Assembly (NCBI RefSeq): GCF_002094305.1
Contig: NZ_LWTX01000002.1
Span: forward strand, 1 to 64,000
Origin: Prescottella equi
GTDB taxonomy: Bacteria > Actinomycetota > Actinomycetes > Mycobacteriales > Mycobacteriaceae
DNA: 64,000 bases
Direction of reading: 5' to 3'
The first letter of the stretch is position 1; each line of letters begins with the position of its first letter. Shown piece after piece: positions 47,360 through 50,382 of this stretch. Below the pieces are notes generated by a model. That model worked only from the letters and a program-made list of their open reading frames with translations, ran no database searches and was not told the DNA's origin. The position numbers were made by a program, and so were the translations under genes.

Positions 47360-47839
47360 ATGACCGACCGGACAGAAACCGCCACAGTTGCCACCACGGG
47401 TGACCGAGGCGTGCACATCGAACGCGTAGTCGGGGCGCCACGCGACCGCGTGTGGGCCGCCTACACCGAACCGGATCTCATCGCCAGGTGGTGGGGGCGC
47501 GGCAACCGGCTCGACGTCGAGAAGTGGGAACTGGGGCGCGGTGGGCATTGGCGCTTCGTCGAACACCACGAGGGCGGTGCGGCCGGATTCGAGGGGCGAT
47601 TCCGGGAGGTGACGCCGGGTGAGCGCATCATCTGGTCGTTCGAGTGGGACGGCATGCCGACCCACGTCTCGGTCGAGACGATCGAGTTCGTCGATCTCGG
47701 TGACGGCCGCACCAAGCTGGTGATGGATTCGATGTTCATGACGCCCGAGGACCGCGACGGCATGATGCAGTCCGGCATGGAGGCGGGTATGAACGCGAGC
47801 TTCGCCGCCCTCGACGCGTTGCTCGCGCAACCCTCCTGA
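47360..47839 (+). CDS. SRPBCC/AHSA1-domain protein
   Basis: 159 aa. IERVVGAPRDRVWAAYTEPD, WWGRGNRL and GGHWRFVEH are the hallmarks of the AHSA1 branch of START-like proteins, which form a hydrophobic ligand-binding cavity. Role unknown. Confidence 0.87.
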   Translation: MTDRTETATVATTGDRGVHIERVVGAPRDRVWAAYTEPDLIARWWGRGNRLDVEKWELGRGGHWRFVEHHEGGAAGFEGRFREVTPGERIIWSFEWDGMPTHVSVETIEFVDLGDGRTKLVMDSMFMTPEDRDGMMQSGMEAGMNASFAALDALLAQPS

Positions 47840-47872: not shown

Positions 47873-47914
47873 ATCACTTTCCGCAAAACGCCGTGGTCCG
47901 GGCCGACCCTCGGC

Positions 47915-47920
47915 TATATT
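47915..47920 (+). promoter_or_regulatory. Probable -10 box of the 29-aa peptide gene
   Basis: TATATT in an otherwise GC-rich stretch, about 50 bases before ATG 47971; a convincing -35 is not seen. Confidence 0.45.
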
Positions 47921-47970
47921 TCGGGCGCATAACGACCTTGTCGACCGGTCTCGCCCTGGAAAGGCCCACG

Positions 47971-48060
47971 ATGAACCTCAACCTCGTCTCGCTGTTCCCG
48001 TTTCTGATCGGACCGATCGGCAACCTCCTGAATTTCGGCAGCACCCTCGATTTCAGCTGA
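47971..48060 (+). CDS. 29-aa hydrophobic peptide, PorH/PorA-like in character
   Basis: Too short for routine gene calling. It begins MNLNLVSLFPFLIGP and ends NLLNFGSTLDFS-stop; GGAAAGG lies 7 bases before the ATG, a TATATT box lies upstream and a 14-bp terminator hairpin directly follows. It has no signal peptide, no charged residue except Asp27, and is amphipathic to hydrophobic. Its size, M-[N/D]-L-x-L opening, single domain and Ser-terminated tail resemble the small corynebacterial mycomembrane peptides PorA and PorH, which are O-mycoloylated on serine; that is analogy, not demonstrated homology. The FGS element echoes the GSLGS/FGS tracts of the exported proteins in this window. Confidence 0.65.
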   Translation: MNLNLVSLFPFLIGPIGNLLNFGSTLDFS

Positions 48061-48078
48061 GCGCGACACCCGTTCGCG

Positions 48079-48110
48079 GCGACACCCCGGGACAGATCCC
48101 GGGGTGTCGC
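48079..48110. terminator. Bidirectional terminator between peptide gene and rtcB
   Basis: GCGACACCCCGGGA and TCCCGGGGTGTCGC: perfect 14-bp stem, 4-base loop CAGA. Begins 18 bases after the peptide stop and 17 bases from the rtcB stop. Confidence 0.85.
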
Positions 48111-48126
48111 TGCTTCCACGGACCGA

Positions 48127-49323
48127 TCAGGTGCCCTTCACGTTGAGGATCTGCCGCAGCGTGTGCCGGACCTCCACGAGATCTCGAGCGTCGTCCATGA
48201 CGACGTCGATGTCCTTGTAGGCGTCCGGGATCTCGTCGATCCACTCGGCGCCGTGCCGGTACTCGATCCCCTTCATCCGGTCGGCCAGGTCCGCCACGGT
48301 GAACCGCTTGCGGGCCTGCGTCCGGGAGAATCGACGGCCGGCGCCGTGCGGGGCGGAGCACAGCCCGCGCGCATCGCCCTTTCCCCGGACCACGTAGGAC
48401 CGGGTGCCCATCGACCCCGGAATGACCGCGTCCACGCCCTCGTGCGCGTCCACCGCCCCCTTGCGGGTGAGCCACACCGTCTCTCCGTAGTGCTCTTCCT
48501 GCTCGGTGTAGTTGTGGTGACAGTTGATCCGCTCTTCCTCCACCACCGGCGCGCCGATCCACTCGCCGAACACTTCGGCGAACCGATCCATCATTTCCGC
48601 GCGGTTCAGCAGCGCGAACCGCTGCGCCCAACGCAGTTCCCGGATGTACGCCCAGAACTCGGGCGCACCCTCCGCCAGGTAGGCGAGATCCCGGTTGGGC
48701 AACCCGATGTGCCATGTCCGGCAGAGCTTCTGGGCGATCGCGATGTGCTTCTGTGCAATCTTGTTCCCCACCCCACGACTACCGGAGTGCAGGAACAACC
48801 AGACCCGATCCTCCTCGTCGAGGCACAGTTCGATGAAGTGGTTGCCGCCGCCCAGCGAACCCAACTGCTCACGCCACTTCGGGGAGTGCGACAGATCGAC
48901 GCCGTCGCGCGCCGCCCGCTCCTCGAGTTCGGCGATCTTGGGCTCCGCGAACCACTTCCCGAGCGACGCGGTCAGGTTGTAATTGCCCGGAGACAGCGGG
49001 ATCGCGCGCTCGACACCCAGGCGCAGCGTATGCAGCGTTCGTCCCGCACCGCCGCCACGCTCGATGTCGACCAGGCCGAACTGCGTTCGCGCGGCGATCA
49101 TTCCGCATCCGATGTCGACACCGACCGCCGCCGGGATCACTGCTCCGCGGGTGGGAATCACCGTTCCCACCGCCGAACCTTTGCCGAAGTGCGCGTCCGG
49201 CATCAGTGCAATGTGCGGGTACACGAACGGCATGGACGCGGTCTCCCGCGCCTGCGCGAGGGTTCCGTCGTCGATGTGGCTGGCGAAGTTCACGAGGTTG
49301 TGGTCGTGCTCGGTGGGGCTCAC
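48127..49323 (-). CDS. rtcB: RNA-splicing ligase RtcB
   Basis: 398 aa from GTG 49323, with GGAGCAGG just upstream. Mn2+/GTP-dependent ligase motifs: DAHFGKGS, VGVDIGCGM, GGGNHFIEL, HSGSRGVG, INCHHNYTE, and the guanylylated histidine in APHGAGRRFSR. Joins 2',3'-cyclic phosphate to 5'-OH RNA ends, for example after toxin cleavage. The archease partner and RtcA are not nearby, consistent with the bacterial type that works alone. Confidence 0.93.
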   Translation of the reverse strand: MSPTEHDHNLVNFASHIDDGTLAQARETASMPFVYPHIALMPDAHFGKGSAVGTVIPTRGAVIPAAVGVDIGCGMIAARTQFGLVDIERGGGAGRTLHTLRLGVERAIPLSPGNYNLTASLGKWFAEPKIAELEERAARDGVDLSHSPKWREQLGSLGGGNHFIELCLDEEDRVWLFLHSGSRGVGNKIAQKHIAIAQKLCRTWHIGLPNRDLAYLAEGAPEFWAYIRELRWAQRFALLNRAEMMDRFAEVFGEWIGAPVVEEERINCHHNYTEQEEHYGETVWLTRKGAVDAHEGVDAVIPGSMGTRSYVVRGKGDARGLCSAPHGAGRRFSRTQARKRFTVADLADRMKGIEYRHGAEWIDEIPDAYKDIDVVMDDARDLVEVRHTLRQILNVKGT

Positions 49324-49491
49324 TGTCCTGCTCCGGTCGGGGACGAACGACACGGGGATCGCCCACGCCGCTGTCCGATCAATTGTTCGATATTCCAACC
49401 GTAGAGCGATTTCGGGACAGGGCAAGCGAATTACCCTCCGGCAGCGTTCAATGGACCGCGGCGGACAACACATGCGAGGACGGTGACAGAC

Positions 49492-50382
49492 ATGACCGAG
49501 CACGACGACTGGGCACACCACAGCGGGGCTTCTGCCCTGCGCCACTTCGCTCCCGAGGTGGCGTCGACGCTCGATCGCATCGTCGCGACCGCTCCCACCG
49601 ATCTCGCCGCCGGCACCCGAGTGGTGTGCGCGCGGACCCTGTCACTTCCGCCGCTGCCGGCGCCCGCACGGATCGCCGACGACCTCACCGGTGCCTCGCT
49701 GGAGTTCGCCGAGCAATTCTCGGTGGACGTGTCGATGATCGACGATGCCCAGCGTGCCTCGTTGACCACCGCGATCGGTGCGGACACCGGCAGATTCGTC
49801 CAATTGCTGTACGTCGCCGACTGGGTGCCGCGGGCGCGGGCCGGCCTCGACGCGCTGTTCTCGGCGTCCGAACCGGGGTGGACGGTCCCCGTCGAGTGGG
49901 ACACCGCCGGCGAACCGTGGCCGCTGATCCAGCGCACCCTCGTCGAGATCGCACGGGTACGTGAACTGGACCCGGTGACCACCGAGGTGGTGCGCCTCTA
50001 TCAGGCCCGGCAGCACAATTGTCGTCTGTGCAAGTCGCTGCGCAATCGGACCGCGATGATGGCCGGCGGCCGCGAGGAACTGTACGACGAGATCGACGAC
50101 TTCCGGCGCAGCGGGTTGTCGCCGCGGCACAAGGCTGCGCTCGAGTTCGCCGACGCCTTGATCTGGCAGCCCGCTCGCATCGATCCGCAGGTGGTGGCCG
50201 ACGTCCGCACGCACTTCTCCCCCGCCGAGGCCGTCGAGCTCGTGATCGATCTGCTGCGTAACGCGTGCAACAAGATCGCGGTGTCGACGGGAACGGACGG
50301 CGCGAACGTCGCCGAGGGGATCGAGGTCTACGACGTCAATCCCGACGGCAGCGTCGACTTCGGTCTGGCGCTACCCGGCTGA
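49492..50382 (+). CDS. AhpD-like carboxymuconolactone-decarboxylase-family protein
   Basis: 296 aa. The redox pair sits in RQHNCRLCKSLRN, the AhpD-type CxxC with the usual histidine missing upstream; two CMD-like helical repeats are apparent. Members act as alkylhydroperoxidases. GTG 49483 is an in-frame alternative but sits only 2 bases after GAGGA. Divergent from rtcB across 168 bases. Confidence 0.8.
   Translation: MTEHDDWAHHSGASALRHFAPEVASTLDRIVATAPTDLAAGTRVVCARTLSLPPLPAPARIADDLTGASLEFAEQFSVDVSMIDDAQRASLTTAIGADTGRFVQLLYVADWVPRARAGLDALFSASEPGWTVPVEWDTAGEPWPLIQRTLVEIARVRELDPVTTEVVRLYQARQHNCRLCKSLRNRTAMMAGGREELYDEIDDFRRSGLSPRHKAALEFADALIWQPARIDPQVVADVRTHFSPAEAVELVIDLLRNACNKIAVSTGTDGANVAEGIEVYDVNPDGSVDFGLALPG

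What the first reader, a model, noticed from the sequence alone, without database searches (positions are those of the whole stretch)
47971..48060. Hidden 29-aa PorH-like peptide gene with its own promoter and terminator
A complete small transcription unit: TATATT box, GGAAAGG ribosome site, 29 codons, and a perfect 14-bp hairpin 18 bases after the stop. The peptide is hydrophobic, begins MNLNL and ends LDFS, with no signal sequence. Corynebacterial PorA and PorH are mycomembrane peptides of similar size and style, carried outside without signal peptides and O-mycoloylated on Ser. Rhodococci are not usually credited with PorA/PorH, so this could be a new minimal mycomembrane peptide family.
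Basis: partly seen in the sequence, partly recalled or inferred. Interest (0 to 1): 0.8.

Follow-up and report, generated by a model that had tools for sequence, protein, structure and literature searches.

The report
Conserved 29-residue likely mycomembrane peptide gene
A tiny, easily overlooked gene in a Rhodococcus-group bacterium is real and conserved in the genomes of its genus that could be checked, belongs to a set of three kinds of very short peptides, and probably makes a small part of the cell's waxy outer membrane, although that role is untested.

Summary
In detail: 47971-48060 (+) encodes MNLNLVSLFPFLIGPIGNLLNFGSTLDFS, with the reported TATATT, GGAAAGG and 14-bp hairpin. It is a real gene: present in 14 of 14 genomes held of the genus (Prescottella, the Rhodococcus equi/hoagii group), under frame-specific purifying selection, with TATATT 44-51 nt before the ATG in 14 of 14 and rtcB convergent downstream in 12 of 14. 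A second locus, upstream of lpd in 14 of 14, encodes one to three 26-27-aa relatives (B) plus one 33-52-aa partner (C). All 55 peptides lack Lys and carry a C-terminal GS-x3-[FLIM]-S tail (3 with one extra residue), recalling the NFSS end of corynebacterial PorH, whose Ser56 is O-mycoloylated (PMC5310785). The genome encodes enzymes closest to Cmt1, which does this. No homology to PorA/PorH was detected, and outside the genus only weak partial hits. Best reading: a genus-specific set of signal-less mycomembrane peptides that works like PorA/PorH without belonging to those families. Export, lipidation, location and pore activity are inferred, not shown.

The parts
47971..48060 (+). Peptide gene (kind A), 29 codons plus TGA: MNLNLVSLFPFLIGPIGNLLNFGSTLDFS
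   Evidence: A-type homolog in 14 of 14 genus genomes; pooled pN/pS 0.22 among six close homologs, low only in this frame
47915..47920 (+). TATATT, -10-like box
   Evidence: ends 44-51 nt before the ATG in 14 of 14 genomes; CTATATT invariant in the 14-sequence upstream alignment
47958..47964 (+). GGAAAGG ribosome-binding site
   Evidence: in the upstream alignment GAAAGG stands at this place in 8 of 14 and GAAGGG in 4 of 14 genomes, other purine-rich sequence in 2
48079..48110 (.). Perfect 14-bp inverted repeat (17 pairs when folded, 48076-48113); possible terminator of the peptide gene, of convergent rtcB, or of both
   Evidence: perfect stem of at least 13 bp in 5 of 14 genomes; no T-run
48127..49545 (-). 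rtcB (RNA ligase), convergent neighbour; longest ORF given, true start probably further in; not part of the peptide unit
   Evidence: Pfam RtcB PF01139 E 4e-114, matching residues 98-471 of 472; within 1.5 kb of the peptide gene in 12 of 14 genomes
47360..47839 (+). AHSA1-family protein gene upstream; not part of the peptide unit
   Evidence: Pfam AHSA1 PF08327 E 5.4e-26; matched upstream in 6 of 14 loci

Best explanation
The ORF is a genuine small gene for a 29-residue mycomembrane peptide, one of three kinds found in the genus Prescottella. Kind A is encoded alone, mostly beside rtcB. Kinds B (26-27 aa, one to three tandem copies) and C (33-52 aa) are encoded together upstream of lpd. Proposed mechanism: the peptide leaves the cell without a signal peptide, as PorA, PorH and ProtX do in Corynebacterium; its hydrophobic part forms a mildly amphipathic helix; a Ser in the C-terminal GS-x3-[FLIM]-S tail is O-mycoloylated by a Cmt1-like mycoloyltransferase; and the lipidated peptides assemble in the mycomembrane, alone or as A/B/C hetero-oligomers, into a small channel or a membrane-to-wall anchor. 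Shown here: the gene, its conservation, selection on the peptide, the relatives, the shared tail and the presence of Cmt1-like enzymes. Inferred: export, lipidation, location, assembly and pore activity.
For: A-type gene in 14 of 14 genus genomes. pN/pS 0.26 in frame against 0.72-5.65 in the other five frames for five equal-length genes. 27 B peptides and 14 C peptides in 14 of 14 genomes. GS-x3-[FLIM]-S tail in 55 of 55: B 27 of 27 and C 14 of 14 exactly at the end, A 11 of 14 at the end and 3 of 14 with one extra residue (my count on the lists; the GS in B is partly by construction, as the script required it). No Lys in 55 of 55; B has no Arg or His either, so none has a Sec-like basic start. 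A DNA pattern for GS-x3-FS-stop (TAA/TGA only) gave 9 matches in the own genome against 4 for the reversed control; read codon by codon, 2 of 9 encode the exact tail, A and C. PorH ends NFSS with Ser56 mycoloylated and PorB has the same four residues (PMC5310785 passage); mapped sites lie among Gly, Ala and Ser (PMC11066868 passage). Two of four enzymes compared match Cmt1 well above PS1 and Ag85A: 247, 160 and 107 bits; 220, 132 and 111 bits. PorA, PorH and ProtX lack signal sequences and porH-porA is an operon (PMC12632848); B plus C has a similar layout.
Against: No sequence homology to a known mycomembrane peptide. No data on transcript, peptide, location or lipid. A and B in most genomes (26-29 aa) are shorter than the 37-aa PorACur that its authors call the smallest pore former (PMC5944148 passage). 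There is no strict mycoloylation consensus (PMC11066868), so the tail is only suggestive. MspA-type porins are present in 14 of 14 genus genomes, so the peptides are not needed to explain general permeability. Amphipathicity is modest: 1.9% (A), 5.4% and 5.9% (two B) and 10.1% (C) of shuffles reach the observed moment. Pooled pN/pS is 0.50 over all 14 A genes and 0.77 over 27 B copies, paralogs included. One A peptide (G012) is net +1, not acidic. The IGN motif shared by A and B is missing in 7 of 14 A peptides.
Confidence: 0.5

Rival explanations
1. Small plasma-membrane protein: a hydrophobic peptide that stays in the inner membrane and tunes a membrane enzyme or transporter, without export or lipidation.
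For: Size and hydrophobicity (GRAVY 0.96) fit known bacterial small membrane proteins (recalled); no export route was shown.
Against: No Lys in 55 of 55 peptides and no Arg in B (A 6 Arg in 14, C 12 Arg in 14), so little to set a membrane orientation; a C-terminal tail shared by three peptide kinds; tandem and paired genes in a mycolate-bearing genus, as with PorA/PorH.
Confidence: 0.25
2. Membrane-active secreted or toxic peptide: a multi-peptide leaderless bacteriocin, a phenol-soluble-modulin-like peptide, or a type I toxin.
For: Tandem signal-less peptide genes of 26-27 aa resemble the layout of multi-peptide leaderless bacteriocins and of tandem type I toxin genes (recalled).
Against: No Lys and no Trp in 55 of 55 peptides, and acidic residues outnumber basic ones in each kind as a set (G012 A is an exception at +1), whereas such peptides are usually cationic (recalled). 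Present at fixed loci in 14 of 14 species genomes. Of four window neighbours scanned, three are RtcB, AHSA1 and a short-chain dehydrogenase and one has no Pfam match: no immunity or transporter gene recognised; the upstream neighbours of the B/C locus were not scanned. B copies are 44-53 nt apart, too close for separate toxin and antisense units. No PADLOC or PHROGs match for the three peptides of this genome.
Confidence: 0.1
3. Leader peptide or attenuator: translation of the short ORF controls the hairpin and the gene after it.
For: Short ORF followed closely by a strong hairpin.
Against: The next gene, rtcB, is on the opposite strand; the next plausible + strand ORF past rtcB starts near 49483 and has no Pfam match at E 1e-5; a long perfect hairpin is found in 5 of 14 genomes while the peptide is in 14 of 14; the amino acids rather than the bases are conserved.
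Confidence: 0.03
4. Chance ORF with incidental signals.
For: Short length; seven of the 14 genomes match the window peptide only weakly (E 0.004-0.8).
Against: Conserved start, tail, promoter box and, in 12 of 14, neighbour across 14 of 14 genomes, with frame-specific selection.
Confidence: 0.01

Closest known systems
PorA/PorH of Corynebacterium (mycomembrane channel peptides, NCBIfam NF033925, NF033938)
   Same: Tiny, no signal peptide, paired genes; PorH ends NFSS with Ser56 mycoloylated (PMC5310785). Recalled PorA and PorH sequences are net -4 and -8 and hold few basic residues.
   Different: No detectable homology; loci beside rtcB and lpd rather than between groEL2 and the polyphosphate kinase gene (PMC5944148 passage); A is 27-39 aa and B 26-27 aa against 45 and 57 aa; channel activity untested.
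PorACj and PorACur (40-aa and 37-aa channels of C. jeikeium and C. urealyticum)
   Same: Single very short mycomembrane channel peptides (PMC5944148 passages).
   Different: Longer; at or near the groEL2 locus; proven pore formers.
ProtX and PorB/PorC of C. glutamicum
   Same: Mycoloylated mycomembrane proteins; PorB shares the NFSS end with PorH (PMC5310785 passage).
   Different: PorB/PorC are about 130 aa (PMC11927696 passage). Not compared directly; the family scans of the present peptides returned no porin family.
Anion-selective cell-wall channel reported in R. equi (Riess et al. 2003, known here only through PMC9233653)
   Same: Same group of species; an anion-selective activity besides the cation-selective one.
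   Different: No gene is tied to it in the passages I saw; a link to these peptides is a hypothesis.

Membership tests
PorA family (NF033925) | Match to the curated PorA profile | tested here: not met
   0 of 14 genus genomes match at E 0.01, in a search of 201 genomes; of 14 controls it rings, over cut-off, only in C. glutamicum. It also reached cut-off in 0 of the 201, Corynebacterium-like genomes not excepted, so the profile is narrow
PorH family (NF033938) | Match to the curated PorH profile | tested here: not met
   0 of 14 genus genomes over cut-off; 3 of 14 weak matches, E 0.087-0.995, at other places; hhalign with recalled PorH aligns 2 columns
PorA/PorH families | Gene position between groEL2 and the polyphosphate kinase gene | tested here: not met
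   Peptide genes lie beside rtcB and lpd; the groEL2 region itself was not looked at
Signal-less mycomembrane peptide (functional kind) | Short peptide without Sec or Tat signal | tested here: met
   26-52 aa, no Lys in 55 of 55 peptides; judged by eye and composition, no signal-peptide program was run
Signal-less mycomembrane peptide (functional kind) | O-mycoloylated Ser | not testable with these tools
   A candidate C-terminal Ser is conserved and Cmt1-like enzymes are encoded
Signal-less mycomembrane peptide (functional kind) | Mycomembrane location and channel formation | not testable with these tools
   Needs fractionation and bilayer recordings
Leaderless bacteriocin / type I toxin | Cationic membrane-active peptide with immunity gene or antisense RNA | tested here: inconclusive
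   No Lys, acidic as sets; no partner recognised among four window neighbours. Antisense RNA and the neighbours upstream of the B/C locus were not tested; the cationic expectation is recalled

The most novel reading that the evidence does not exclude
Prescottella (the R. equi group) builds an undescribed three-component mycomembrane assembly from 26-52-residue peptides A, B and C that share a C-terminal GS-x3-[FLIM]-S lipidation tail, arose independently of PorA/PorH, and accounts for the anion-selective wall channel reported in R. equi. It would contain the shortest genetically encoded outer-membrane channel subunits known.
Probability: 0.2. Interest if true: 0.85.

Novelty: new variant of a known kind. 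Interest (0 to 1): 0.6.

Why it matters
In the passages I read, channel peptides of 37-57 residues are described only from Corynebacterium. A conserved set of even shorter ones in the R. equi group would show that signal-less, probably lipidated peptides are a wider solution for mycolate outer membranes. It would give small models for two open questions, how such peptides cross the plasma membrane and what Cmt1-type enzymes recognise, and would offer candidate genes for the anion-selective R. equi channel. It is also a conserved peptide set without a match in Pfam or NCBIfam.

Tried and rejected
Rejected: membership of PorA or PorH; known families in Pfam and NCBIfam (the best weak hits for a C peptide were glycine-zipper profiles at E 0.04 and 0.44 and GltG at E 0.73, all below cut-off), PHROGs and PADLOC; relatives with solved structures (best E 1.1 and 0.026, the latter to inverted formin-2, taken as chance); Rfam families in loci L034, L040 and L003 (none); the leader-peptide reading (opposite-strand neighbour).

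Led nowhere: peptides in the lpd slot of other genera. One search matched lpd in 42 of 61 genomes, 28 of them outside the genus; I looked upstream in 16 of those 28, the ones returned as loci, on the sense strand only and with a size and composition filter: nothing with the tail. Outside the genus the A/B profile gives 4 of 387 genomes at E 0.01-0.04, all partial; the C profile gives 27 of 387 at E 0.005-0.094, all partial. Both are samples of a larger family, and at most 17 candidates per genome were scored. Viral, phage, plasmid and metagenome collections were not searched.

Rows left out of counts: pN/pS 0.22 is for six A genes (G000, G006, G004, G012, G007, G009); 0.42 for five shorter variants; 0.50 for all 14. 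The C ratio of 0.33 is for 13 of 14, without the divergent G008 copy. Alignment A1 held 13 of 14 A sequences; A2 held six distinct A sequences, standing for 7 of 14 genomes, and 13 B sequences; A4 held 7 of 14 C sequences.

Full report
What is there. The ORF at 47971-48060 (+) reads MNLNLVSLFPFLIGPIGNLLNFGSTLDFS. TATATT (47915-47920), GGAAAGG (47958-47964) and the 14-bp hairpin (48079-48110) are as reported. The consensus scan found no sigma-70 promoter and did not call the hairpin a terminator, as it has no T-run; its one terminator-like hit lies upstream, at 47898-47913. The hairpin lies between the peptide gene and the convergent rtcB (Pfam RtcB) and may belong to either.

It is a gene. The protein search found a match to the A-type gene in 14 of 14 genomes of the genus, own included: 7 of 14 at E 1.2e-5 or better and 7 of 14 weakly, E 0.004-0.8. 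The weak ones are shorter or longer variants that share the start, the tail, the upstream box and rtcB. One genome, G003, is only 79% complete. The genus is Prescottella with the Rhodococcus equi/hoagii group: the four named loci have the contig lengths of G004, G012, G006 and G001. The species of the window was not determined. rtcB is found within 1.5 kb downstream, convergent, in 12 of 14 (in G003 only the last 41 residues matched; none in G007 and G008, where the peptide gene is present). TATATT ends 44-51 nt before the ATG in 14 of 14 and CTATATT is invariant. Among six close genes pooled pN/pS is 0.22; over five equal-length genes the coding frame gives 0.26 and the other five frames 0.72 to 5.65, stop codons in those frames left out; over all 14 genes the ratio is 0.50.

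It has relatives. The same search and a profile search hit a second locus. There one to three B peptides (26-27 aa, copies 44-53 nt apart) are followed by one C peptide (33 aa in G008, 49-52 aa in the other 13), upstream of lpd (TIGR01350 for the G006 gene) in 14 of 14 genomes: 27 B and 14 C. The window's own genome has one B and one C on contig 5. In an alignment of six distinct A and 13 B sequences N, IGN, GS and the final S are invariant; but 7 of the 14 A peptides, not in that alignment, lack IGN. C shares the MN start and the tail, but hhalign between A/B and C aligns only the first six residues at 12% probability, so common descent of C with A and B is not shown. A perfect stem of at least 7 bp with a loop of at most 12 nt follows C in 9 of 14 genomes; in two more, G006 and G000, the same arms are read around a 13-nt loop; three were not examined further.

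Composition and tail. No Lys and no Trp occur in the 55 peptides. A has 6 Arg, 3 His and 24 acidic residues in 14 peptides; B has no basic residue and 51 acidic in 27; C has 12 Arg and 52 acidic in 14. One A, in G012, is net +1. The tail GS-x3-[FLIM]-S stands at the end in 52 of 55 and one residue before it in 3 of 55, all A (my count; the script required GS in B). In 48 long mechanical ORFs of the window, a rough background, 6 end in Ser and 1 in [FLIM]S. A DNA pattern for GS-x3-FS-stop gave 9 matches in the own genome against 4 for the reversed control; read codon by codon, 2 of 9 encode the exact tail, A and C (TAG stops and L, I or M before Ser were not in the pattern).

Why mycomembrane. 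In C. glutamicum PorA and PorH are 45- and 57-aa signal-less peptides from one operon, mycoloylated through Cmt1/MytC; PorH ends NFSS with Ser56 modified and PorB has the same end (PMC5310785, passages; PMC11927696, passages; PMC12632848, abstract, introduction, one results section and discussion). Mapped sites lie among Gly, Ala and Ser with no strict motif, and Cmt1 orthologs are reported from Rhodococcus (PMC11066868, passages). PorA/PorH and ProtX also serve a corynephage (PMC9671496, passages), which I did not follow. Of 15 esterase-family matches in the own genome I compared 4 with solved structures: two match Cmt1 well above PS1 and Ag85A (247, 160 and 107 bits; 220, 132 and 111 bits), two only slightly above PS1 (158 and 144 bits; 156 and 141 bits).

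Why not PorA/PorH proper. The curated profiles do not match: PorA 0 of 14 genus genomes, with the C. glutamicum control ringing, though that profile reached its cut-off in 0 of all 201 genomes searched and is therefore narrow; PorH 0 of 14 over cut-off. hhalign with the recalled PorA and PorH aligns one or two columns. Outside the genus only weak partial hits appear among 387 sampled genomes of the family, and none of 16 lpd loci of other genera shows such peptides. MspA-type porins are present in 14 of 14 genus genomes, as in R. ruber and R. corynebacteroides (PMC9233653, passages). That paper says that an anion-selective channel has been demonstrated for R. equi, citing Riess 2003, which I could not read. 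PorACur, 37 aa, is called the smallest stable pore former (PMC5944148, passages).

In print. Searches (9 of 9 papers listed; 14 of 14; 15 of 19; 10 of 19; 0 papers; 2 of 2) showed, by title and start of abstract, no paper on these peptides. The library lacks most subscription journals, so this is weak evidence of absence.

Judgement. That this is a selected, translated small gene: about 0.97. That it is a mycomembrane peptide working like PorA/PorH: about 0.5. That A, B and C act together and make the R. equi anion channel: about 0.2. All three are my estimates.

Noticed in passing
G000:C5:288958-289227 (-), outside the window (L040, L072): Second peptide locus of the same genome: one 26-aa B and one 50-aa C gene upstream of lpd; 14 of 14 genus genomes have C with 1-3 B copies.
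   Followed up: yes
About 250 nt upstream of the first B gene, e.g. L034:7330-7590: Conserved blocks such as TCACGGTC (14 of 14 in the alignment) and GGTAGCGGGGTCCCCCGG (many genomes) over a stretch longer than a simple promoter; a regulator site or long leader is possible. No Rfam match in L034 or L040.
   Followed up: partly
L035 (G001), B copies 1 and 2: Two adjacent B genes encode identical peptides, suggesting recent duplication or gene conversion in the tandem array.
   Followed up: no
L036 and L009 (G008): In this divergent genome C is only 33 aa, and no rtcB is found within 1.5 kb of the A gene.
   Followed up: no
G000:C1:132516-133325 (-) and G000:C2:404333-405154 (+): Two proteins closer to Cmt1 than to PS1 or Ag85: candidate protein O-mycoloyltransferases.
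   Followed up: partly
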